Assembly: GCF_001598915.1 (NCBI RefSeq)
Contig: NZ_BDAP01000001.1
Location: 1,116,001-1,180,000, forward strand
DNA length: 64,000 nt
Reading direction: 5' to 3'
Origin: Williamsia muralis NBRC 105860
GTDB taxonomy: Bacteria; Actinomycetota; Actinomycetes; Mycobacteriales; Mycobacteriaceae
Of the stretch, positions 35,782-46,896 are shown piece by piece. The notes beneath the pieces are model-generated. The model searched no databases. It saw nothing but the letters and a program-made list of their open reading frames with translations, and had not been told where the DNA came from. Each line of letters starts with the position of its first letter. The first letter of the stretch is position 1. Position numbers and translations under genes: made by a program.

Positions 35782-36271
35782 CCAGTCTACGTGGCCACGG
35801 TCGGCGTCCGGCCCGAGCGACGAGCCGTCGGCCCGGCTGGAGCCTCTGCCCGGCCCGCGGTTTTGGATCTCGTCGAGCCGCGGCCACGCGCCCAGTAGGC
35901 GCCGATGGATCCGGGATTCAAACGCCGATCAGCCCAGAAATTTGAATTAGCAAGAAAGTGATTCGATAAATCAATTCGAGATGAACCAGCGCCACATAAT
36001 TGTAAAGAATACTTCGCATTTACTCGAAGTCATAAAGAATATGTGAGACGCCGGTCCGGTTGTCGCCGCTCACGGTAAAGCCCTCGTGGATGCAATGTGA
36101 ACAACTCCTTAATAGGCCCGTGTGGGCGTTATCTACGTTGAAGCCCGGGTAGTTCATCAATAACGTGGATCGCGGCGAGAACGAAGCAAGGCCTAGGTTG
36201 AACCGGCACTTCCGTCACGAGTCACCGCAGAGTGCAGACGCCAACAATCGGTGTGAGAGAGGGTTTTTCGC
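35782..36271. promoter_or_regulatory. AT-rich leader region of the lanthipeptide cluster
   Basis: This 490-base gap contains no gene I can support. Its middle (about 35930-36050) is visibly AT-rich compared with its neighbours, with runs such as ATAAATCAATT and CATAAAGAATATG. It must hold the promoter of the methyltransferase-kinase-HopA1 operon. A ribosome site GAGAGAGGG lies before the ATG at 36272. No regulator gene is seen in the cluster. Confidence 0.45.
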
Positions 36272-37012
36272 ATGTCTGGAGAAGATCTCTATCCCGCCCG
36301 GATCGCACAGATCTACGATCTGCTGTACCCGGACTTTTTCAATGACACCGCAACATTCTGTGAGTTCGTCAGGTCGCGGGCCAAGGGCAATCGAGTTCTC
36401 GAATTCGGAGTGGGCACGGGCCGGATCGCAATGCCATTGGCAGAAAAAGGATTTGAGGTGACCGGCCTCGATGTCTCCAGCGAAATGCTGGCGAAGTTGA
36501 AGGAGAAAGACGTCGATGGGCGGGTCAAGGTGGTGGAGCAAGACTTCATTACCGAGAGGGTCGAAGGAACATTCGATGCCGTCCTGCTCATGATAAACAC
36601 CCTGTTCGTCGCGAAGACCCTGGACGAGCAGGTCGCGGTATTCGGCAATGCCGCAGCCAATCTCACTGACGACGGGTTCTTCCTGGTGGAGACCTTCAAT
36701 CCCAATCACTACCATGGTCTTCGCCAACCGGACGTGCAGATGCGCCAGCTCGACGCCTCCACCACCCAGCTGGAGCAGTACGTGGCCGAGCCGAGCCGGC
36801 AGTTGCTCATCGCCCAGAACCTCGTCTTCCGAGATGGCGAACAGTTCAATTACACGCACGTCCTCAGATACCTGTTCCCCTACGAGATGGACGCCGTTGC
36901 CCGCAACGCGGGTCTGACATTGGCCGAGCGCTGGGCTGATTGGGGCAGTACACCTTTCGGCCCCGACAGCCCACGCTGCCTGTCGCTGTACCGCAAAGAC
37001 GTGCCGTCATGA
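36272..37012 (+). CDS. SAM-dependent methyltransferase of the lanthipeptide cluster
   Basis: This 246-residue class I methyltransferase has the SAM motif LEFGVGTGRIAMPLAEKG (about 44-61) followed by VTGLDVSSEML and the later VLLMINTLF. Methyltransferases are regular members of class V lanthipeptide clusters, where they dimethylate the N-terminus or methylate other positions of the peptide. It is the first gene of the upstream operon and its stop overlaps the kinase start (ATGA). Target residue is not known. Confidence 0.8.
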   Translation: MSGEDLYPARIAQIYDLLYPDFFNDTATFCEFVRSRAKGNRVLEFGVGTGRIAMPLAEKGFEVTGLDVSSEMLAKLKEKDVDGRVKVVEQDFITERVEGTFDAVLLMINTLFVAKTLDEQVAVFGNAAANLTDDGFFLVETFNPNHYHGLRQPDVQMRQLDASTTQLEQYVAEPSRQLLIAQNLVFRDGEQFNYTHVLRYLFPYEMDAVARNAGLTLAERWADWGSTPFGPDSPRCLSLYRKDVPS

Positions 37013-38103
37013 CAAAACCCGTGTTCCGGCGGCAAGAGAAGCAACTCCTCTCCTCGATCGCGCACGTGATCCCGCAGTTGGGCCGAGATGTCGATGAGAT
37101 CACTGAGGTCAAACCCCTGCTCGGCCGCAACATCAGCGGCCAGATCACCTTCGAGGGCGCGCACACCGTGTTCATCAAACGCATGACCGGACTGGGCGCG
37201 GTGGACCGGTACACCCGAAGTGTGTCGTTCCACGATGCGATCGACGTGTCCGACGCGCCCGCTCACACTGCGACGCCCGCACTTCTCGCTCGTGACAACG
37301 ACAGTCACACGGTGGTGTACGAGTTCATCGACGACGCGGTCAGTGCGGGTCAACTGCTCCGAGACGACGACATCGACTTCGCAACCCTCGAACGTGTCGG
37401 TCGATGCGTCGCGGGACTGCATTGCTTGCCGGTGCGCGATGCCTCGGTGACCGACCACACCACACCGTTCTTCCCGCCACACGGACCGAACGCCATCTCC
37501 ACCCAGATGTACTACGGGTCCACCATGGGCCAGCTCGACATGTGGCGAATCATCCAGTCCGATACAGGTTTACGGGCAGCGCTCGACCAGCTCGCGACCA
37601 CACCGACGCCGAAGGTACCCATCCACGGAGATCTGCGCGGAGACCAGATCCTGCTGGCCGGCGAGACCAACTGGATCCTCGACTGGGAGGATTTCCGGCT
37701 CCAGGACGGCGCCCGCGACGTCGGCGCTCTGATGGGCGAGGTGTTCTACCATCGGATGCGAAAGAGCCTGGCCTCGTTTGCAGGTGGCGACGAAGAATCG
37801 GTCACCGACACCGAGATCATCGAGCGGGGCACGGCTGCATTGGCCGAGGCGACGCCGGGTGCCCGTGCGGTATGGGACGCGTACCGCGCGGTCCGGGCCG
37901 ACGCGGCCGACCCTGAGTTCGTTGCGCGAAGTGTTCAGTACTTCGGCTGGCAACTGTTCGATCGGGCGCTTGCGGCCGGAACGTACTTCGGGCGGTTGTC
38001 GGCACTCGATCGCGCGCTGGCAGGCATCGGCCGCGAGGCCATTCTCGGCGGCGGCGACTACGCCGAGGCGCTCGGCATGACCGAGGGGAGGGTCGCGGCG
38101 TGA
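37009..38103 (+). CDS. APH-fold kinase, class V lanthipeptide LanK type
   Basis: This 364-residue protein has an aminoglycoside-phosphotransferase-like fold. The catalytic loop is HGDLRGDQILL (206-216; D208 as base), followed by WILDWEDF (222-229) with metal-binding D225. In class V lanthipeptide synthesis this kinase is thought to phosphorylate Ser and Thr of the precursor so that the HopA1-type partner can eliminate phosphate. ATG 37009 overlaps the methyltransferase stop; the stop overlaps the next GTG. No antibiotic target is likely. Confidence 0.82.
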   Translation: MTKPVFRRQEKQLLSSIAHVIPQLGRDVDEITEVKPLLGRNISGQITFEGAHTVFIKRMTGLGAVDRYTRSVSFHDAIDVSDAPAHTATPALLARDNDSHTVVYEFIDDAVSAGQLLRDDDIDFATLERVGRCVAGLHCLPVRDASVTDHTTPFFPPHGPNAISTQMYYGSTMGQLDMWRIIQSDTGLRAALDQLATTPTPKVPIHGDLRGDQILLAGETNWILDWEDFRLQDGARDVGALMGEVFYHRMRKSLASFAGGDEESVTDTEIIERGTAALAEATPGARAVWDAYRAVRADAADPEFVARSVQYFGWQLFDRALAAGTYFGRLSALDRALAGIGREAILGGGDYAEALGMTEGRVAA

Positions 38104-39125
38104 CCACAGTGCAACGACACGAACAACTACAACATGAACAACTACGACATGGACAACCGGACGGCAGCACCTCACACGTCGAACTCGATCAGGCGGTCCG
38201 ATGGTTGATCGCGCGGACAAGTGCATTGACGGTTGCTGAATCCGGTTCTTGCGAAGTGACTTTCGACGGAACCGAACTCAGTGCCGAGTCCCCGGCCGAG
38301 CTGCAGCGCGACCTCGGTGGGCATCTCTACCGCAACCTGCATGCGGGCATGTCCGCAGGCGCGGGTGACAGCGAGTTCATCCCTGCGCTTCTCGAAGATC
38401 CCGAACTCGAGTCGCGATTGTACGAGGCGACGCCGGTCAAACATCGAGCTTCCACGATGACCCTCGTCGAACGCGCTCCCGGCGACTCTGGAGTTGTGTT
38501 GTCGATCAACGGTGTTCGGGTCTTCTTCGAATCGAACACCATTCTCTCAGAGGGCGAGCACACCGTTGTGGCCGCGGTGCCCTCGGTGGAGAGTCGACTG
38601 TCGTTGGGGTTCATGTTCTACACGTCCACGGCGGGTGCCGGGCACACGTCCCGTCTGCTCCGCCTGTACCGCCACCTCGGGGACGCCGAAGAAGCCATCG
38701 AGGTGTGGGGATCGTTCACCAGATGGATCGAAGAGCGACGCCTGCCGTTGCGTGTCAAGATCGTGTCGCGGCGCTCGGGGTTCCCGCGCAACGACGGGAT
38801 GGTGGTGTACCTGCCGTCCGAGAGCTGGCACGCGGTCGACGAGATCGCGGACCATCTCCGCAGCGACCGGCCGCACGCCCCGGGCTCACTGTTCTGCCGT
38901 CAGGTGACCAACGGCGTATCGATGGCATGGGAGCCTGCCGACATCTCGACCCCACGCGGTGGGACGAGCTTCGGAGAACACCGCAGCAACACCATTGCCA
39001 AAGCGATCGTGGCCGAGGGGCTGACCGCCGCACCCGATCTGGCCAAAGCTGTTCGACGGCAGCTCATCACGGCCAACATCGACCCTGCCGCGGTGTACCG
39101 CAACCTCGACTCGCCGGCGCACTAG
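38100..39125 (+). CDS. HopA1-family lyase, class V lanthipeptide LanY type
   Basis: This 341-residue protein matches the HopA1 effector-like family: SLGFMFYTSTAGAG, LLRLYRHLGDAEEAIEVWGSF, and the C-terminal GTSFGEHRSNTIAKAIVAEGL are its marks. HopA1 proteins act as phosphothreonine/phosphoserine lyases in class V lanthipeptide and thioamitide systems. An N-terminal tail of repeated His-Glu-Gln (QRHEQLQHEQLRHGQ) is unusual and probably disordered. It starts with GTG overlapping the kinase stop, so both enzymes are co-translated. Confidence 0.82.
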   Translation: MTTVQRHEQLQHEQLRHGQPDGSTSHVELDQAVRWLIARTSALTVAESGSCEVTFDGTELSAESPAELQRDLGGHLYRNLHAGMSAGAGDSEFIPALLEDPELESRLYEATPVKHRASTMTLVERAPGDSGVVLSINGVRVFFESNTILSEGEHTVVAAVPSVESRLSLGFMFYTSTAGAGHTSRLLRLYRHLGDAEEAIEVWGSFTRWIEERRLPLRVKIVSRRSGFPRNDGMVVYLPSESWHAVDEIADHLRSDRPHAPGSLFCRQVTNGVSMAWEPADISTPRGGTSFGEHRSNTIAKAIVAEGLTAAPDLAKAVRRQLITANIDPAAVYRNLDSPAH

Positions 39126-39221
39126 AAGAGTCGGCAACCCAAGACTTGGCCGCACGGCCAGGCGAGGGGCATCTGCTCCTCGACATCAGGAAATGACCGA
39201 ACGAACGAAAGGAAGGACATC

Positions 39222-39425
39222 ATGTCAGAGGCAGTTACGAAGTCCCTGGTGGCTGGATACCGCAGCTACGCGGCAGCACCGGAATTGACCGAGATGAGTG
39301 AAGCAGCTCCGTCCGCGACGCCCGGCATTCTGAGCTTCATCGGCACCTCGTCAACCGCGTGTGGAACCGCAGTGAGCGTCATCAGCTCCGGCGGTGTCGG
39401 AGCAACCATCACCTGGGGTTGCTGA
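39222..39425 (+). CDS. Lanthipeptide precursor 1
   Basis: This 67-residue precursor starts after a strong GAAAGGAAGGACATC site. The leader contains SLVAGYRSY (8-16) and EL (21-22), which match the second precursor. The core begins around ILSFIGTSSTACG after SATPG (31-35) and is rich in Ser, Thr, Gly, Ala and Val. It has two cysteines: one mid-core, preceded by TSST (43), and the terminal residue in TITWGC (67). The C-terminal Cys with Thr three residues before fits an AviCys-type ring made by the cluster's decarboxylase. The leader cleavage site is a guess. Confidence 0.85.
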   Translation: MSEAVTKSLVAGYRSYAAAPELTEMSEAAPSATPGILSFIGTSSTACGTAVSVISSGGVGATITWGC

Positions 39426-39505
39426 CCGCTCCACCACGCTCGACACGCCTGACCCTCTCGATCCGAGAATCCAAAGATCAGACCATCCACTCTCGAAGGA
39501 GCATC

Positions 39506-39712
39506 ATGACCAATTCTCAGTCACTCATCTCCGGATACGCCAACTACGTCCGCAGCGAAGAGCTCGCTCACGTCAACGCGGAATCGGCACCCGGCATCAG
39601 CCCGGTCTCGGCGTTCGTGTCGGCCTCCAGCCCCGAATGCGCTGCCTTCTCGGTCGGTGCCAGCGCCGGTGTTGTCACCAGCACCAGCATCACCGTCGGC
39701 GCAGGTTGCTGA
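39506..39712 (+). CDS. Lanthipeptide precursor 2
   Basis: This 68-residue precursor starts after GAAGGAGCATC. Its leader has SLISGYANY (6-14) and EEL (18-20), parallel to precursor 1. The core probably follows SAPG (27-30) and reads ISPVSAFVSASSPECAAFS, then a Ser/Thr-rich stretch ending SITVGAGC. It has two cysteines, C45 and the terminal C68. Here the nearest Thr lies five residues before the last Cys, unlike three in precursor 1, so the rings may differ in size. Two peptides could be two products or a two-component pair. Confidence 0.85.
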   Translation: MTNSQSLISGYANYVRSEELAHVNAESAPGISPVSAFVSASSPECAAFSVGASAGVVTSTSITVGAGC

Positions 39713-39729
39713 CGTAGCACTCCAGGCCT

Positions 39730-39761
39730 GCCACGGAGACGCGCTTTGCCGTCTCCGTGGC
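39730..39761 (+). terminator. Strong hairpin after the precursor genes
   Basis: GCCACGGAGACG pairs perfectly with CGTCTCCGTGGC (12 base pairs) around an eight-base loop, with no T-run. It lies 18 bases after precursor 2 and before the protease operon. It may terminate some transcripts or protect the precursor mRNA, so precursors are made in excess of enzymes. Confidence 0.65.
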
Positions 39762-39828
39762 GGCGCCGGGTGATCGGGCGGCGCCGAACACAGTCCGGTA
39801 GAGCATTGCGAAGGGACGGGCAGAAGCG

Positions 39829-41079
39829 TTGAACAGCAGTGGAGTTCAGACCATGCCGAGGCATGGCGAGTTCACGATGACTTGCCGGCGTCGGGGTCGG
39901 TGCCACATCACTGCGAGCCGGGTGCAGTCCGCGCGCACGATGGGACTGAGTGTGGTGATCCCGGTGGGGACCGCCCACGAGCGGCCCGGAGAGGCCGGCT
40001 TCGCCCATCTGAGCGAGCATCTGATGCATCAGTACGCTCGAGATCAATGGGGAGAGAGAGTCGAAGACCAGATAGTCCGTGTCGGCGGCATCTCGAACGC
40101 GCAGACTTACCCGTTTCACACCGAATACAGCTTTGTCATCCCGGCGCCCGCCGAAGCCGAGATACCGGACTGGATCGACCGGGCGATCGCACGGGTTGCA
40201 CCACCGCGCATCACGTCGGTCGACATCGAATGCGAGGGCCGAATCATCCGGCAGGAGGTGGCACGCCGTATGTCGACCTCGCCGACGGCGGGATTTCCCT
40301 GGATCGACGCACTGGGCGTGTTGTCGACCGACTTCGGGCTGCGCCACAACGGATTCTCGGATCTTGCCGACATCGAAGCGGCCACGCCGGAGGCAATCGA
40401 GCGTTTCCTGCATCGCACGTACTCGCCAGCACCGGTGGCCGTGGGTGTTGCCGGGCCGTGGAGTCCCGACCTGATGCTGGATCTCCTCGGTTGTGAAGAG
40501 AGTGAACCGGAAACAGCCGCGACAGACGCCTACACCGCGGCTTTCGGCGACCTGATCGATGGCCCGCACCACCGGCAGAGTTCCGTTGCGACCCAGATTC
40601 CCATGTACTCGTCGATTCGATACGTACCCGACGCACACGGGGCCGCCCTGGAATCAGCACAAGCGCACTCCATGATCGCGGTCGAATGGGCCAACGCCGT
40701 TTCGCCCGGAACACACTGGCAAGCAGGACTGTTCGGCGCAACGATGGGGCCGGACCACCGTGTTCTCATCGGAAGTCGGCCTCACGGCGCCGACATCGCG
40801 GTTCCTCAGTGGACCGATACGCCCTCGGATCGACGCTCCGAACTCTTTGTGCACGCACAGCAGCGCGCGCTGGACAACATCGACAAGGAACTGTCGAGCA
40901 CGGCGACCCACGCCGCGATGCTGGCTCGAGACAGCGCATTCGGCATACCGACGTGGGCACGCCGCTGCGCTGTCGCCCAGACAACACCTGAAGAGATCGA
41001 TCAGTACCTCGGGCATGCGCGCGCGTGTGCGGCCGGGACACTGAGTTCGGCAGCGCCGACAGGGGTGGGTCGATCATGA
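39829..41079 (+). CDS. M16-family protease with intact zinc site
   Basis: This 416-residue M16B protease has the inverted zinc motif HLSEH (H60, E63, H64) and the third ligand E143, 79 residues later. Such enzymes are part of class V lanthipeptide clusters, where a pair is thought to remove the leader. The listed start is TTG (39829); ATG at 39853 is an alternative but lies nearer the motif. The stop overlaps the next gene (ATGA), which encodes the inactive partner. Confidence 0.82.
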   Translation: MNSSGVQTMPRHGEFTMTCRRRGRCHITASRVQSARTMGLSVVIPVGTAHERPGEAGFAHLSEHLMHQYARDQWGERVEDQIVRVGGISNAQTYPFHTEYSFVIPAPAEAEIPDWIDRAIARVAPPRITSVDIECEGRIIRQEVARRMSTSPTAGFPWIDALGVLSTDFGLRHNGFSDLADIEAATPEAIERFLHRTYSPAPVAVGVAGPWSPDLMLDLLGCEESEPETAATDAYTAAFGDLIDGPHHRQSSVATQIPMYSSIRYVPDAHGAALESAQAHSMIAVEWANAVSPGTHWQAGLFGATMGPDHRVLIGSRPHGADIAVPQWTDTPSDRRSELFVHAQQRALDNIDKELSSTATHAAMLARDSAFGIPTWARRCAVAQTTPEEIDQYLGHARACAAGTLSSAAPTGVGRS

Positions 41080-42206
41080 CGAGCCTGCTGACCGAGGACG
41101 TATTGGTGCGGGGTAACACCGACCTGATGTACCTCTCGCTCGTGACAACACCGGCGGTGCGATGGGGTGCGCGGTCGCGTCTGGCGCATACCCTCACCGA
41201 GGGGCTCCAGCGGGCCGGCATCGTTTCGGCTCGCGCCCACGCCGGCTCCGAAGGGATCTTTGTCACCGCGACGTGGCGATCGGATCCCCGCGCTGTCGAT
41301 GAGCTGGTGGCCAGACTCCATAGCTGGCGAGAGACGTTTGCAGACAACATGATCGCACCCGCATCTCCGCCGACCTCGCCGGCCGAACTGATCACCGCCC
41401 TGACCTTCGACGCCGACGACGAGACCGACCCCACCGAAGGTGAACTGACGTCCATCCTGACCACGCTGTCCTTCGACGTGGTTGTCGGGGGTGGCGACTG
41501 CGAATCCGCGCTCCGCTCAGCCCGTGACCGAATCTGCGACGTGGTCAACACCGCAGTGGAGAACGGCGTGAAGCCGAAGCGGGAAACCGCGCGCCGAACA
41601 CCTCGGCGGCCGGACGTGACGACACGGCGCTGGGCCCAGGTCCCGGTCAGGTCATCGTGGGTGCGGTGGTATCGGTTCATCGACCCACCGACAGACCCCG
41701 GCGAGCGACTCGCGCGGAGCCTGGTGAATGTGGCCTTCGGGGGCGTGTACGGCTCACACCTCGTCGACTGTGTTCGGGGCCAGCGCGGTTTGAGCTACAG
41801 CCCTCAATCCACGTTGTTGCAGCGCGACGGACGGCATCTGCTGGTCGTGGATGTACAGACCACGCCGGGCGATGAAGATGCCTGCGACGACGCCATCCGG
41901 ACCGCTCTCGACCAGTTCGCGCATCGAAAGCTCACGCGGCCCAGCATGGTGGACGCGGCGCGCTATCTGATCGGTCGCACCATCGTCGACCGTGATTCCT
42001 TGCAGTCGGCGGTGGACGAACGCGCGGCGATATACGAGGGTTCTCTGGATTCGGCGCTGGACACCACCGGGTCGCCAGAGGATCTGCTCGCTCGCGCCGG
42101 CGTCGACACACTGACCCGCACGGTCGAAACCATGTACGAGCCAGACGGGTTCGGTGCTGTGGTGCTCTCACCTGACCGCTCCAATGGAAAGTGGGTTGAA
42201 TTGTGA
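41076..42206 (+). CDS. M16-family protease-like partner without zinc motif
   Basis: This 376-residue protein shares the M16 fold and length, with VAFGGVYGSHLVDCVRGQRGLSYSPQS near residues 227-253, but lacks the HxxEH zinc motif; the equivalent region reads AHTLTEGLQRAG. It is therefore the non-catalytic subunit of an M16B heterodimer, as in bacterial pairs such as PqqF-like and SprP1/P2-type proteins. It is coupled to the catalytic subunit and the downstream reductase by ATGA overlaps. Confidence 0.8.
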   Translation: MTSLLTEDVLVRGNTDLMYLSLVTTPAVRWGARSRLAHTLTEGLQRAGIVSARAHAGSEGIFVTATWRSDPRAVDELVARLHSWRETFADNMIAPASPPTSPAELITALTFDADDETDPTEGELTSILTTLSFDVVVGGGDCESALRSARDRICDVVNTAVENGVKPKRETARRTPRRPDVTTRRWAQVPVRSSWVRWYRFIDPPTDPGERLARSLVNVAFGGVYGSHLVDCVRGQRGLSYSPQSTLLQRDGRHLLVVDVQTTPGDEDACDDAIRTALDQFAHRKLTRPSMVDAARYLIGRTIVDRDSLQSAVDERAAIYEGSLDSALDTTGSPEDLLARAGVDTLTRTVETMYEPDGFGAVVLSPDRSNGKWVEL

Positions 42207-43228
42207 ACTCGAACATCGGAATCATGTATCCGGAGATGCCTGTTGCCATCGGTCCGGTGGTGCCGTACGCGGAGGCGGCCCGCAGAGGTGGCCATCGTCT
42301 GTGGTTCGGTCACTCGTCGACAGTCGATTCCCATCTCACGATGGCTGCGCTGGCCGGCCGGGGATATCCGCTCCAATTCGGCAGTGCCGTAGCGCTTTAT
42401 CCCCTGTTCCAGCCTCACGGATTTGCTGTCCAATCCCAATCGGTGGGGCGGCTGACCGGCCAGACCTACGTGGCCGGGATCGGTCCCGGAAGTGCGCAGT
42501 TGCAGCAGAGCCTCTATGGCGCGCCGATGAAGGCGCCGGTCAGTTCGGCGCGGAAGTTCCTCGATCAGGTGAAAGAGATCATTCCCGGACCTCTGCAGAC
42601 GGGTCCGGCCGACGGCCCGGAGCGAGTCGACAAGATGTTCGGCTCGGTCGAAACCGGGTTAGGGGTTCTTCGTCCGAGCATGGCCCGGTGTGCCGGGCGG
42701 GCCGCGGAATGGGCGATCACCTGGCTCACCCCAGCCGGGTACCTCGAGGATGTCCTGATCCCCGAGATGTGCGAGAGCGCAGCACAACACGACCGACCCG
42801 CACCCCGCGTCGCCGCTGTGGTCCACATGGCCATTCGCCGTCCGGGACGAGATCCGCAGAAGCTCGCGCATGCCGCGGTCGGAGCTCATCTGAGCGCGCC
42901 GCACTACACCGACATGCTCCGACAGGGCGGTGTCGCCGTCGATCAATCCGATCCGTGGGCGGGCGCCGGTGAACTGGTCTCGTCCGGGACCTACCTGTAC
43001 GGGTCTGCTGACGAACTCGTCGACTCGGTCGCCGACCTGCACGGGCGTGGCGTGCACGAGGTTGTCCTGAATGTCTTCGGTGTCGTCAAACTCCATGGAG
43101 CCGGCCAGGCTGTCGAGGATCTCGAGGAGATCCTGGCCGCGCTCCACGCCAAATCATCTGCGCGCCTGACGATCCCCGAGCACGCGATCCCGCGGATGTC
43201 TGCCCGATCCGCCGGGGTGGTTGCCTGA
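42203..43228 (+). CDS. LLM-class F420-dependent reductase of the lanthipeptide cluster
   Basis: This 341-residue luciferase-like TIM barrel begins with GTG overlapping the previous stop. It shows GGHRLWFGHSSTVDSHLTMAA near the start and TYVAGIGPGSAQLQQSLYGAPM, plus SGTYLYGSADELVDSVADLHGRG at the C-terminus. In the lexapeptide system an F420H2-dependent enzyme reduces dehydroalanine to D-alanine, and pristinin-type clusters also carry an oxidoreductase, so the same job is likely here. The cofactor is inferred from the family. Confidence 0.77.
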   Translation: MNSNIGIMYPEMPVAIGPVVPYAEAARRGGHRLWFGHSSTVDSHLTMAALAGRGYPLQFGSAVALYPLFQPHGFAVQSQSVGRLTGQTYVAGIGPGSAQLQQSLYGAPMKAPVSSARKFLDQVKEIIPGPLQTGPADGPERVDKMFGSVETGLGVLRPSMARCAGRAAEWAITWLTPAGYLEDVLIPEMCESAAQHDRPAPRVAAVVHMAIRRPGRDPQKLAHAAVGAHLSAPHYTDMLRQGGVAVDQSDPWAGAGELVSSGTYLYGSADELVDSVADLHGRGVHEVVLNVFGVVKLHGAGQAVEDLEEILAALHAKSSARLTIPEHAIPRMSARSAGVVA

Positions 43229-43839
43229 TGGATGGCGCGGACCCACAGTCGTACCGCATCGACGGGCTCGCCGAACGCCGGATCGTGGTGATGGCTACGG
43301 GAGCGCTCGGCTCGGCCTTCCTGCACTCGTGGTTGGGATGGTTGCGCTCGACATCCCCGTCCACGCAGGTCCGAGTGGTCCTCACCCCTGCCTCCCTGCA
43401 GTTCGTCGGGCTGGGCACCATCCGAGGGTTTGGGTACGAACCGGTGATCGACAGCTGGCAGGACAACGAGCACCGGCCGATTCACGTGGATCTCACACAG
43501 TGGGCGCAGGGGTATCTCGTTCACCCGGCCACCATGAACTTTGTGTCCAGACTCTCTGCCGGACTCTGTGATTCGCCGGCGATGCTGGCCATTCAGGGCA
43601 GTACCGCCCCGGTGGTGGTGGCCGCCTCGGCGCCACCGGGTTTCACCCAGACACCGGTATGGCATCGGCACCGCCAAGCCCTGGAGGACCGTCCCAACGT
43701 CGAGTTGCTGGCGCCGATGAAGGGCTTCAGCGTGAGCGATCCGGATCTGGAAGGCCTGCCGCCGGTGCTGTTTCCGATTGCGGCGCAGGCGTTGTCGTCC
43801 GCACTGGCCGATCAATCCCAGCTGGAGAGCTCGGAATGA
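43228..43839 (+). CDS. HFCD flavoprotein, C-terminal cysteine decarboxylase
   Basis: This 203-residue protein belongs to the homo-oligomeric flavin-containing Cys decarboxylases (LanD/TvaF-like). TPASLQF (53-59), active-site H86 in IHVDLTQW, and HPATMN (99-104) with LSAGLCDSPAM correspond to the usual PAS-x-x-F, His and PATxN motifs. It should oxidatively decarboxylate the terminal Cys of both precursors, giving an aminoenethiol for AviCys formation. Its ATG overlaps the reductase stop. Confidence 0.82.
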   Translation: MDGADPQSYRIDGLAERRIVVMATGALGSAFLHSWLGWLRSTSPSTQVRVVLTPASLQFVGLGTIRGFGYEPVIDSWQDNEHRPIHVDLTQWAQGYLVHPATMNFVSRLSAGLCDSPAMLAIQGSTAPVVVAASAPPGFTQTPVWHRHRQALEDRPNVELLAPMKGFSVSDPDLEGLPPVLFPIAAQALSSALADQSQLESSE

Positions 43840-44813
43840 ACGGCACAGGGACGGACAGTGCCGGATTGAACACTGCTGAATTGAACACTGCCACCACGGT
43901 CTGGGAGTTCGACACCGCGGCCTGGTACCAGCGGCTCATGCACACCGGCTCGTCGTTCGCGCTGACCCGCCGCTATCGGCAACAGTGTGAGGCCGAGCAC
44001 CAATGGGGCCAGACCGTAGCCCCGTCTGTCGGACGAGCCGCGTTCGTTCGCGGGGTACGGGTGGATGACAGCGAGTTCCGGTTCGACCTGGCAGTCGGCG
44101 ACCAACTCGCCAACCAGCTGTGGCCTGTGGTGAGCCCGACGTTCCTGACCGACAACGGTTTGCAGAGTATGGCCGACCTCGGGCGACTCGTGGCTCGCCT
44201 GCACGGCGGCGGTCCGCCTCCGCCCGGGGATGTCGGTGGTCCCCACGTGCGACGACTGCGTTCCTACCTGTCGGCCACCGATTCCCCGATGGTTGTGTCG
44301 GCAGTGCACGCAGCGCTACAAGGGGAGACGCTGGGCGCGCTCCGGTCGATCGCCCGGACGATCACCGATGGGCCGCACCTGACCTGCCACGGCGGTTTCA
44401 GCCTGGGGTCGGTGTTCACCGACGACGATCACAAGACCGTGCAGGTCGCGATCGGGCCGGAGATGTGCAGTGGGCCTCCTGAACTCGATCTGGGCTGGAT
44501 GATCGGTGAACTGACCGAGTTCGAATACACCGCCGCGAACTCGGGTAAGTCTCTCGGTGCCGCGCACTCGCCGCCGTTCGGACGAGCAGCGCAGGCCCTG
44601 CTCGACGGCTACTCGGCTGAATCCGGTCGAGAGGTCGATCGACGACACCTCGACGATGTGGTGGCTGCTCGCATCGCACTCCACATGTTCGACTTCGTGC
44701 GGACCACCGGCCGTACGGACCACCTTGCGGGCCTTGCCCCGTTTGTGACGTGGTTGACCCGACGACAACACATGCGCGACAACACCGAACCCGACGATGG
44801 GACACGATCATGA
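43836..44813 (+). CDS. Degenerate APH-fold protein, possible LanX-type cyclase
   Basis: This 325-residue protein has no recognised full domain. Its second half resembles the neighbouring kinase: CHGGFSLGSVF (184-194) aligns with HGDLRGDQILL, and PELDLGWMIGEL (215-226) aligns with the end of the same fold. The catalytic Asp is Gly, and the metal-binding Asp region is lost, so it should be a pseudokinase. Known class V systems contain a third protein (LxmX in lexapeptide) needed for ring formation; this position and gene set suggest the same role. The assignment is inferred from context. Confidence 0.6.
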   Translation: MNGTGTDSAGLNTAELNTATTVWEFDTAAWYQRLMHTGSSFALTRRYRQQCEAEHQWGQTVAPSVGRAAFVRGVRVDDSEFRFDLAVGDQLANQLWPVVSPTFLTDNGLQSMADLGRLVARLHGGGPPPPGDVGGPHVRRLRSYLSATDSPMVVSAVHAALQGETLGALRSIARTITDGPHLTCHGGFSLGSVFTDDDHKTVQVAIGPEMCSGPPELDLGWMIGELTEFEYTAANSGKSLGAAHSPPFGRAAQALLDGYSAESGREVDRRHLDDVVAARIALHMFDFVRTTGRTDHLAGLAPFVTWLTRRQHMRDNTEPDDGTRS

Positions 44814-45727
44814 CAAGCCAGACGTCCATGAACGTCCTCGATTCGAGTCGAACCGGATCGACGAGCGTTCGCGTAGACGGACTCACCATGCGTTATGGCA
44901 CAACCGATGTGCTGAAAGACGTGGGATTCGAGATCCCTTCCGGCCAGAAGGTCGCCGTACTGGGCCCCAACGGTGCCGGCAAGAGCACGCTGATCGAGAT
45001 CCTCGAGGGTCTGCGAAAGCCGTCCGGGGGCAACGTATCAGTGCTGGGTCACCGCCCCGACGATGCGCCCGAGCAGTGGCGGTCGCGCCTCGGCGTGGTG
45101 CTGCAGGCGTGGCGGGACCACGGGACGTGGAAGATCGGTGACTTCCTGCGGTACATCAGTGCGGCCCATCGGGCAGCGGGTGTGGCGAACCTCTGGCCGG
45201 TCGACGAGTTGCTCGAAGCAGTCGAACTGGGCGACCGCGCGAATCAGCAGATTCGATCCCTCTCGGGAGGTCAACGCCGTCGGGTGGACGTTGCGGCCGC
45301 ACTGATCAGCCGGCCGGAACTACTCTTTCTCGACGAGCCGACAACAGGTTTCGATCCGGAGATCCGGCAATCGTTCTACGAACTCGTCCGAAGTCTGGCG
45401 CACTCGACGACGATCATCTGGGCCACACACAATCTGTACGAAGCCGAAGAGATGTGCGAGCGCATCATCATCCTGAATCACGGTCGGGTGGTGGCCGACG
45501 GGAGTCCGACCGAACTGCGCGCCACGCTGGCCTCGACCAGCACCGTGTCGTGGATGTCAGAGCAGGGTCCACGGCGTCGTGTGGTCGCGGACTCCGATTC
45601 GCTGGTGCGCGAGCTGGTCACGGGCCCCGAGCGTGCCTGGAATCTGGAGGTTCAGCGCGGCACCCTCGAGCAGGTGTACCTGTCGATCGTGCGCGAGAAC
45701 AACACGGCTGAGGAGGTCCGACCATGA
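44810..45727 (+). CDS. ABC transporter ATP-binding protein of the lanthipeptide cluster
   Basis: This 305-residue ATPase has Walker A GPNGAGKST (52-60), signature LSGGQ (151-155) and Walker B LLFLDE (171-176). It is of the drug-export (DrrA-like) class. ATG 44810 overlaps the previous stop, and its stop overlaps the permease start, so it forms the exporter with the next gene. It could also confer self-resistance. Confidence 0.88.
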   Translation: MTSQTSMNVLDSSRTGSTSVRVDGLTMRYGTTDVLKDVGFEIPSGQKVAVLGPNGAGKSTLIEILEGLRKPSGGNVSVLGHRPDDAPEQWRSRLGVVLQAWRDHGTWKIGDFLRYISAAHRAAGVANLWPVDELLEAVELGDRANQQIRSLSGGQRRRVDVAAALISRPELLFLDEPTTGFDPEIRQSFYELVRSLAHSTTIIWATHNLYEAEEMCERIIILNHGRVVADGSPTELRATLASTSTVSWMSEQGPRRRVVADSDSLVRELVTGPERAWNLEVQRGTLEQVYLSIVRENNTAEEVRP

Positions 45728-46578
45728 CAACAATCGCTTCGCGAGCCGGCGCCGGCAGTCTCGGTGTGGTGAAGTTCGGGGCGTTGCAGGCCAAGGTGGA
45801 ATTGGTCATCCGGTTCACCCGGCCGAGCGCGCTGGGGCACCTGATCGTTCCGATCGCCCTGGTCCTGATCTTCACCAACGTGGACGTCAGCGATGTCCTG
45901 GGTGGACAAGGTGCCGTCGGGATGCTCGCCGGGATCGCTGCCGCGTCGCTGTTCGTCGGTGGATTCGTCGGGATCTGCGGGGAGCTGGTCTCCGAACAGG
46001 ACGACGGAACCATGCTCAGGGTCCGGACGCTGCCCTACGGGCTCGCCGGACATCTGATCGGAAAGACGTTGAGTCTGTTGGTGACCGGTGTGGTGACAGC
46101 GTTATTGATTCTCATCCCGGCCCACATCTTCGTCGCCCCGATCCTGCCCGGGACGTTCGCGGGATGGGTCGCGTTGGCTGGTGTCGCGGCGTTGACGTTG
46201 TTCGCGACCGTGCCCATCGGTGCGGTCGCCGGCAGCCTGGTGAAGTCGCCGCTCGCGATCTTCCCGATCTCGTTGGTGGCGTACGCCCTGATGTCGGTGT
46301 CGGGCATCTTCTTCTCCATCGGGGACCTCCCGGATTGGCTGACGGTTCCCATCAAGTTCTTCCCGGTCTACTGGCTGGGATTGTTGTCACGGGTGACGCT
46401 GGTCCCCGGTACCACGTTCGACGGTGTCGGACAGGTGGTGCTGGCGATCGGGGTTCCCGTGGCGTGGGCGGTGCTGGGGCTTGTCCTGGCGCCGCGGGCG
46501 TTGCGGGTGATGACCCGCCGCCAGTCAGGTGCTCGCCTGGAAGCCCTCGCGCAGCGTCGTGCCGCGCGGGGCTACTGA
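45724..46578 (+). CDS. ABC-2 type permease of the lanthipeptide cluster
   Basis: This 284-residue permease has six hydrophobic segments and an N-terminal cytoplasmic stretch, as in DrrB-like ABC-2 exporters. It ends with a basic tail (RQSGARLEALAQRRAARGY). It pairs with the ATPase to export the mature peptides. It is the last gene of the translationally coupled chain from 39829. Confidence 0.87.
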   Translation: MTTIASRAGAGSLGVVKFGALQAKVELVIRFTRPSALGHLIVPIALVLIFTNVDVSDVLGGQGAVGMLAGIAAASLFVGGFVGICGELVSEQDDGTMLRVRTLPYGLAGHLIGKTLSLLVTGVVTALLILIPAHIFVAPILPGTFAGWVALAGVAALTLFATVPIGAVAGSLVKSPLAIFPISLVAYALMSVSGIFFSIGDLPDWLTVPIKFFPVYWLGLLSRVTLVPGTTFDGVGQVVLAIGVPVAWAVLGLVLAPRALRVMTRRQSGARLEALAQRRAARGY

Positions 46579-46644: not shown

Positions 46645-46896
46645 ATGTCGTTCAAGGACTTGATCGTCGGTGACCATCGCAACCCCCGAGAAGAGATTGT
46701 CGCGATCTTCGGCGAACATCAAGGCGCCGACGACCCACAAGCGATCGCTCGCGCGACCACATGGGCGCAGGGTGTGCTGAACACCGCTGGGATCCCGGCG
46801 GACAAGCAGGTCGAGGCGATCGCTGAAATCCGCAGGGCCGAGCCACGTCTGGGTCTCAAGTCGGCGACCCACCTGGCGTCGTTGCTCAAGAAGTAG
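46645..46896 (+). CDS. Uncharacterised small helical protein
   Basis: This 83-residue protein starts MSFKDLIVGDHRNPREEI after a perfect AAAGGAGAAACACG site. It appears all helical and charged (KQVEAIAEIRRAEPRLGLKSATHLASLLKK at the end). I do not recognise the family. It lies 66 bases after the lanthipeptide permease, but the separate strong ribosome site and the terminator after it suggest a gene of its own. A link to immunity cannot be excluded. Confidence 0.7.
   Translation: MSFKDLIVGDHRNPREEIVAIFGEHQGADDPQAIARATTWAQGVLNTAGIPADKQVEAIAEIRRAEPRLGLKSATHLASLLKK

What the first reader, a model, noticed from the sequence alone, without database searches (positions are those of the whole stretch)
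36272..46578. Complete class V lanthipeptide-type cluster in a mycolate actinobacterium
Twelve genes in two translationally coupled blocks flank two tandem precursors. They are: methyltransferase; APH-fold kinase; HopA1-family protein; precursors; M16 pair; F420-type reductase; Cys-decarboxylase flavoprotein; APH-like pseudokinase; ABC exporter. The order closely follows class V lanthipeptide loci of Streptomyces (lexapeptide and pristinin type). There is no LanB, LanC, LanM or YcaO gene, so classes I-IV and thioamitides are excluded. I know of no characterised example from this group of organisms.
Basis: partly seen in the sequence, partly recalled or inferred. Interest (0 to 1): 0.92.

Follow-up and report, generated by a model that had tools for sequence, protein, structure and literature searches.

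The report
Class V lanthipeptide cluster in Williamsia
This is a complete, intact gene cluster by which a mycolate bacterium (Williamsia) probably makes two related ring-containing peptides, a new and divergent member of a kind of peptide pathway already known from Streptomyces.

Summary
Window 36272-46578 holds 12 tightly packed genes: methyltransferase, LanK kinase, LanY (HopA1) lyase, two precursors, an M16 pair, F420-type reductase, Cys decarboxylase, pseudokinase and ABC exporter. The class V (subgroup Va) lanthipeptide reading is supported. LanK matches NCBIfam LxmK at E 7e-84, though under the curated cut-off. LanK and LanY match the kinase and lyase chains of the same solved entries, and their catalytic residues are in place. 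The pseudokinase lacks the kinase residues but keeps an E/H/D set conserved in its family, as reported for the AviMeCys cyclase RosX. Both precursors have the class V leader, an inner Ser-Ser-x-x-Cys and a terminal Thr-x4-Cys, and evolve under purifying selection. The block is syntenic in six of nine Williamsia genomes, in two different chromosomal settings, so it moves as a unit. Published mining lists 851 class Va clusters, so this is a new member of a known kind. Its surplus is a deep branch, found here only in Williamsia, and a maintained pair of different peptides. Products and activity are inferred.

The parts
36272..37012 (+). SAM methyltransferase (probable N-terminal N-methyltransferase of the peptide, LxmM/CypM-like)
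   Evidence: Methyltransf_25 7.7e-13; best NCBIfam daptide MTase 83.2 bits, cut-off 175 not reached; CcbJ 3.2e-25 is the best solved match, cypemycin N-terminal methyltransferase 7wzg is third, 2.6e-13. The role is inferred
37009..38103 (+). LanK, Ser/Thr kinase of the precursor
   Evidence: NF038156 LxmK E 7.2e-84, 281.8 bits, cut-off 315; PF01636 1.2e-9; 9dk1_A 4.8e-37; R40, K57, D208, Q213, D225 each 33 of 33 homologues
38100..39125 (+). LanY, HopA1-fold phospho-Ser/Thr lyase
   Evidence: PF17914 1.6e-37; 9dk1_B 1.4e-23; R188, K220, R230, Y237 each 33 of 33 homologues, same spacing as CaoY R187/K219/R229/Y236
39222..39425 (+). Precursor A1, 67 aa; SSTAC motif and TITWGC end
   Evidence: NF038146 leader 18.8 bits, below cut-off 25; same peptide in window, L009, L010, L042, 91% in L011; dN/dS about 0.09 to L011
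39506..39712 (+). Precursor A2, 68 aa; SSPEC motif and TVGAGC end
   Evidence: NF038146 leader 25.5 bits, cut-off 25; same peptide in window, L009, L010, L042, 81% in L011; dN/dS about 0.12 to L011
39829..41079 (+). M16 peptidase, active subunit (start more likely 39853)
   Evidence: PF00675 4.3e-9; H60, E63, H64 (HxxEH) and E143 in 19 of 19 aligned homologues (5 of 24 matched rows, shorter than half the query, were left out)
41076..42206 (+). M16 partner, inactive-type subunit
   Evidence: PF05193 M16 'inactive domain' 6.4e-7, no PF00675 match
42203..43228 (+). LanJ, F420H2-dependent reductase of dehydroalanine (to D-Ala)
   Evidence: PF00296 5.1e-16; TIGR03564 F420_MSMEG_4879 3.7e-24, under cut-off
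43228..43839 (+). LanD, C-terminal Cys decarboxylase
   Evidence: PF02441 3.8e-12; NF033753 CypD family 3.7e-20, under cut-off; CypD structure 6jdd_A 3.3e-20
43836..44813 (+). LanX, kinase-fold AviMeCys cyclase (kinase residues lost)
   Evidence: No Pfam match; profile match to LanK 92% probability with the kinase D, Q, D replaced; E228, H283, D286 conserved in 29/32, 29/31, 28/31 LanX; best fold match TvaE 8jsu E 5.2e-4, with the kinase PsiK next at 5.4e-4, on a low-confidence model
44810..45727 (+). ABC transporter ATPase
   Evidence: PF00005 2.1e-29
45724..46578 (+). ABC-2 permease
   Evidence: PF12698 6e-12
46645..46896 (+). 83-aa conserved protein of unknown role that goes with the cluster (candidate accessory gene)
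   Evidence: Found in exactly the 6 of 9 Williamsia genomes that have LanK; next to the permease in all 5 other loci; 77-99% identical, dN/dS 0.17-0.21; no match in Pfam or PADLOC

Best explanation
It is a class Va lanthipeptide biosynthetic island. Inferred pathway: LanD removes CO2 and two hydrogens from the C-terminal Cys of A1 and A2. LanK phosphorylates Ser/Thr of the cores, guided by the leader helix, and LanY eliminates the phosphate to give Dha/Dhb. The inner Cys adds to the dehydrated Ser four residues earlier (Ser-Ser-x-x-Cys), largely by substrate control. LanX closes the AviMeCys ring between the C-terminal enethiol and the Thr five residues before it (Thr62-Cys67 in A1, Thr63-Cys68 in A2). 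LanJ reduces one or more Dha to D-Ala with F420H2. The M16 pair cuts the leader after an Ala-Pro-x site, the methyltransferase methylates the freed N-terminus, and the ABC transporter exports the two peptides. Gene identities, intactness, motifs and selection are shown here; every chemical step is inferred from characterised homologues.
For: Family assignments. Catalytic residues against published CaoY, LxmK and RosX positions. Leader positions found critical or conserved in CaoA are present in A2 without a gap: L7, Y11, Y14, E19, L20, A28, P29 = -24, -20, -17, -12, -11, -3, -2; in A1 with Ala-Pro one place earlier (placed by eye). Of 25 distinct precursors (4 of them Williamsia's own), 25 end in [S/T]-x4-Cys (mean 7.1, most 16, in 2000 shuffles) and 22 have an inner [S/T][S/T]xxC (mean 1.6, most 7); the other 3 have no inner Cys. 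Both precursors under purifying selection, with spacers far less conserved. Same order in 5 further loci. No LanC in the genome.
Against: LanK, LanD, LanJ and the methyltransferase fall below the NCBIfam curated cut-offs, and A1 below the leader cut-off; identity to non-Williamsia LanK is at most 35%. The LanX model is poor (pLDDT 57.6), TM about 0.3 to TvaE, and an ordinary kinase scores nearly as well. RosX E220 and H269 are 49 apart, here E228 and H283 are 55 apart, so the E assignment rests on family conservation, not on an alignment with RosX. Supply of F420 is not proven: the cofH model finds an 829-aa frame that looks like FbiC, but under its cut-off, and the same model rings in 11 of 14 control genomes. 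No transcript, protein or mass evidence.
Confidence: 0.93

Rival explanations
1. A thioamitide-type or other AviCys peptide pathway rather than a lanthipeptide: the same kinase, lyase, decarboxylase and LanX set makes only the AviCys ring, without lanthionine.
For: Thioamitides share homologues of K, Y, D and X; the first fold match of the pseudokinase is the thioviridamide protein TvaE; the genome does hold one YcaO gene, on another contig.
Against: No YcaO or TfuA match among the cluster proteins scanned; both precursors have an inner Cys in the substrate-cyclising Ser-Ser-x-x-Cys context; LxmK and the LxmA leader are the best-scoring families.
Confidence: 0.03
2. A degenerate or silent remnant that no longer makes a peptide.
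For: No regulator gene was recognised in the cluster, and no expression data are at hand.
Against: No stop in the 13 stretches compared with L010 and L011; dN/dS 0 to 0.42; catalytic residues intact.
Confidence: 0.02
3. The two precursors act as one two-component agent, as in class II two-peptide lantibiotics, not as independent products (compatible with the main explanation).
For: A1 and A2 differ from one another, occur together in 6 of 6 Williamsia loci, and are both conserved, whereas some other class V loci carry identical duplicate copies (L045, L046, L050, L078).
Against: Two different precursors also stand together in L074 and L087, and other class V clusters make several peptides from one enzyme set (rosins A1-A3; the sis family). 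Conservation alone does not show synergy.
Confidence: 0.2

Closest known systems
Rosin cluster (ros), class Va
   Same: LanK, LanY, LanD, LanX, F420 reductase, two M16B peptidases, several precursors, rings over i to i+4 and i to i+5
   Different: ros was chosen for lacking a methyltransferase and has three transporter genes and three precursors; here a methyltransferase, one ABC pair, two precursors, plus the 83-aa gene
Lexapeptide cluster (lxm)
   Same: K, Y, X, D, J, M set and a split M16 pair, one inactive (LxmP1) and one active (LxmP2); solved kinase and lyase chains match P0002 and P0003 (one search names 9dk3 as LxmK)
   Different: LxmK profile score under its cut-off; a single precursor in lxm (recalled)
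Cacaoidin cluster (cao)
   Same: Leader determinants, end TASWGC against TITWGC, K/Y/D/X/J
   Different: cao is about 30 kb, with glycosyltransferases, five regulators and one M16 protein holding both domains; no such genes among the 12 here
Pristinin cluster (spr)
   Same: SprH3, SprPT, SprF1, SprF2, SprOR, M16, several precursors
   Different: O-methyltransferase-type SprMe, one M16 protein with both domains, LuxR regulator

Membership tests
Class V lanthipeptide cluster | Stand-alone LanK (PF01636) with kinase residues | tested here: met
   below the NCBIfam equivalog cut-off (281.8 against 315 bits)
Class V lanthipeptide cluster | Stand-alone LanY (PF17914) with lyase residues | tested here: met
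Class V lanthipeptide cluster | No LanC-type cyclase (and so no LanM, LanL or LanKC, which carry such a domain; recalled) | tested here: met
   No PF05147 match in the genome; the control rang in 1 of 14 genomes
Class V lanthipeptide cluster | No LanB dehydratase | tested here: inconclusive
   No PF04738 match in the genome, but none of the 14 control genomes rang; none among the cluster proteins
Class V lanthipeptide cluster | Precursor with LxmA-type leader | tested here: met
   A2 25.5 bits (cut-off 25); A1 18.8 bits, under it; leader positions placed by eye
Class V lanthipeptide cluster | Lanthionine in the product | not testable with these tools
   Needs mass spectrometry or NMR
Subgroup Va | LanD present | tested here: met
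   (CypD model under its cut-off)
Subgroup Va | LanX: E/H/D set kept, kinase residues lost | tested here: met
   E228, H283, D286 conserved; kinase D/Q/D replaced in the profile alignment. Register to RosX itself not aligned
Subgroup Va | AviMeCys in the product | not testable with these tools
   Thr-x4-Cys end present in both precursors; product unknown
Thioamitide cluster | YcaO/TfuA pair in the cluster | tested here: not met
   None among the cluster proteins scanned; the genome's one YcaO match is on contig C2, away from the cluster on C1

The most novel reading that the evidence does not exclude
The island makes a two-component class V lantibiotic, A1 plus A2 acting together, and the 83-residue protein that goes with it is a new type of self-immunity or regulatory protein. 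I met no report of either for class V, on one search of which I saw 15 of 267 listings.
Probability: 0.15. Interest if true: 0.55.

Novelty: new member of a known kind. Interest (0 to 1): 0.34.

Why it matters
It documents class V lanthipeptide genes in Williamsia as a lineage at most about 35% identical in LanK, and 34% in LanY, to the other sampled clusters, under the cut-off of the standard LxmK model, so annotation by that model alone would probably miss it. The comparison of 25 precursors gives a sharp sequence rule for both rings. The pair of different peptides under one enzyme set is a ready test of cooperation, and the 83-aa gene is a concrete candidate for an unassigned accessory function.

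Tried and rejected
Considered thioamitide, class I-IV lanthipeptide and degenerate remnant (see rivals and membership test). Pfam on the pseudokinase gave nothing even at E 5 and its PDB sequence search nothing at E 1; profile and fold comparison were needed. The 83-aa gene gave no family in Pfam or PADLOC (NCBIfam and PHROGs were not tried on it), a middling model (pLDDT 62.4) and no fold match better than E 4.6; its role is open. PADLOC hits of the ABC ATPase look like generic ATPase matches. The region upstream of the cluster shows partial conservation, not pursued. The LanK search in plasmids found 25 records, all under 60% identity: Streptomyces 22, Nonomuraea 2, Arthrobacter 1. Literature search was too broad to be useful. 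The genome-wide LanB search is inconclusive. In the precursor hunt my filter found none in 9 of the 28 non-Williamsia loci (L049, L051, L075, L076, L077, L081, L083, L090, L091); these are not in the motif count. 40 rows were collapsed to 25 distinct sequences before the count. The LanX profile had drawn in LanK frames while being iterated; the frames labelled K were taken out before the residue count.
Full report
What is there. The window lies in contig C1 of a 5.54 Mb, 22-contig genome. The 12 genes are present, intact and arranged as described.

Who they are. Pfam and NCBIfam name the kinase (LxmK, E 7.2e-84), the HopA1 lyase (1.6e-37), both M16 halves, the luciferase-type F420 enzyme, the flavoprotein decarboxylase (CypD family, 3.7e-20), the methyltransferase and the transporter. 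The NCBIfam hits of kinase, decarboxylase, reductase and methyltransferase fall under their curated cut-offs, which fits a divergent lineage. Precursor A2 reaches the LxmA-leader cut-off (25.5 against 25 bits); A1 does not (18.8). Kinase and lyase match the two chains of PDB entries 9dk1-9dk3; a paper calls 9dk3 the lexapeptide kinase LxmK. The decarboxylase matches CypD 6jdd first; the methyltransferase matches CcbJ first and the cypemycin N-terminal methyltransferase third.

Catalytic residues. In 33 of 33 LanY homologues R188, K220, R230 and Y237 are kept, with the spacing of CaoY R187, K219, R229 and Y236; in the paper K219A lost lyase activity, R187A nearly so, and R229Q was inefficient. 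In LanK, R40, K57, D208, Q213 and D225 (33 of 33 each) fit the R49, K66, D221, Q226 and D241 listed for LxmK (D208 to D225 is three residues shorter). The first M16 protein keeps HxxEH and the second Glu in 19 of 19 aligned homologues. The pseudokinase aligns by profile with the LanK catalytic loop (92% probability), with the catalytic Asp, the Gln and the metal Asp replaced. It keeps E228, H283 and D286, conserved in LanX (29/32, 29/31, 28/31). H283 and D286 have the spacing of RosX H269 and D272; loss of these or of E220 disrupted correct AviMeCys closure. The first fold match of its model is TvaE (E 5.2e-4), but the kinase PsiK follows at 5.4e-4 with a higher TM-score and the model is poor (pLDDT 57.6): support for a kinase-like fold, weak support for LanX in particular.

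The peptides. A1 and A2 are the same in four loci (window, L009, L010, L042) and 91% and 81% identical in L011. Between the window and L011, dS is 0.59 and 0.85 but dN 0.054 and 0.099; the spacers are 0.24-0.48 identical to L011 and L012 while the precursor genes are 0.80-0.87. They are therefore very probably translated and constrained. In L011 and L012 the Thr three before the terminal Cys of A1 has become Ala while Thr62 remains, which points to Thr62 as the ring partner. Of 25 distinct precursors, 4 of them Williamsia's own, 25 end in [S/T]-x4-C and 22 have an inner [S/T][S/T]xxC; the three without have no inner Cys. Rosin A1 has rings Ser6-Cys10 and Thr20-Cys25, the same two spacings.

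Distribution. Strong LxmK matches (E below 1e-80) occur in 6 of 9 Williamsia genomes; the other three have only weak kinase hits, best E 1.9e-10. At E 1e-40 the family search gave 15 of 301 genomes, 6 Williamsia and 9 from other genera, and the class search 14 of 394. The lyase, searched as a single sequence, was found in 9 of 348 genomes of the order. In 28 non-Williamsia loci fetched around LanK or LanY, 24 have both LanD and LanX, 2 LanX only and 2 neither; 22 have the F420 reductase (15-20 kb stretches, so absences may be edges, and LanX labels come from a loose profile). The tree of joined LanK and LanY puts the six Williamsia sequences together on a long branch (support 100), with at most 35% LanK and 34% LanY identity to any other sampled locus. 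Published mining lists 851 class Va clusters under taxid 1760 (PMC12291118, parts 1-4 of 6 read) and 391 SprPT/SprH3 pairs outside Streptomyces, 219 of them in Actinobacteria (PMC7794033, passages). Whether Williamsia is among them I could not see, as supplements were not available.

An island with one more gene. Between the window and L011/L012, in the stretches held, the block from the methyltransferase to an 83-aa gene at 46645-46896 is shared in order, while the genes tested on either side are not, apart from scattered weak matches. The nearest relative of the upstream MFS gene in those two genomes is on a different contig from the cluster (draft assemblies). So the block sits in two chromosomal settings. 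That it moved as a unit is inferred; I did not look for an integrase. The 83-aa gene occurs in exactly the six cluster-bearing genomes of nine and in 5 of 121 family genomes, each a Williamsia with the cluster. It is 77-99% identical, dN/dS 0.17-0.21, and modelled as all helical at middling confidence. Its link to the cluster is shown; its role is not. Immunity or regulation is a guess.

Elsewhere in the genome. No LanC-type gene was found. The LanB search was negative but uncontrolled. An 829-aa frame on contig C9 looks like FbiC, but under the model's cut-off and with a model that rings in 11 of 14 controls.

Verdict. A class Va lanthipeptide cluster, new member of a known kind, strongly supported at the level of genes and motifs. 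LanX and the M16 pair are the most diverged genes (51-59% identity to L011), while A1 (91%), the exporter (82-84%) and A2 (81%) are among the most conserved. The most interesting open point is whether A1 and A2 work as a pair; several different precursors under one class V enzyme set are already known (rosins; sis family, passages), so this alone is not new.

Literature. No paper held both 'class V lanthipeptide' and 'Gordonia'. Of the 4 papers with Williamsia and lanthipeptide I saw passages: none describes a class V cluster in Williamsia; one reports an orphan cluster of unstated type in Williamsia (PMC10134820), one a similarity of an azole-peptide cluster to W. muralis (PMC7358434). The 3 papers with class V lanthipeptide and Rhodococcus were seen as listings only. 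PMC9486802 was read in parts 1-3 of 5; PMC8068269, PMC7794033 and PMC11162475 as passages.

Noticed in passing
   Followed up: partly
L046 11973-12937; L045 and L050: Other family members carry tandem arrays of class V precursors: five copies with two core variants in L046, two identical copies in L045 and in L050.
   Followed up: partly
L045 and L050: One reading frame matches both the LanD and LanX profiles, as expected for the fused LanD-LanX that the rosin paper mentions.
   Followed up: no
L051 and L090: LanK, LanY and the F420 reductase without LanD or LanX within the fetched stretch: possibly class V peptides without AviCys, or incomplete windows.
   Followed up: no
L082 and L085: LanK, LanY and LanX without LanD in reach, and precursors with a single, terminal Cys (TTTTLIFDC end).
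   Followed up: no
35920-36271: AT-richer region before the first gene (GC 0.566 in 36000-36999) with partly conserved stretches between Williamsia groups.
   Followed up: partly
G000:C2:477659-477874: A second, weak relative (33% identity, E 6e-4) of the 83-aa protein elsewhere in the same genome.
   Followed up: no
L109 (G000:C2:701586-702623): A YcaO gene (E 2.1e-48) on another contig of the same genome, perhaps part of an azole-type peptide cluster.
   Followed up: no
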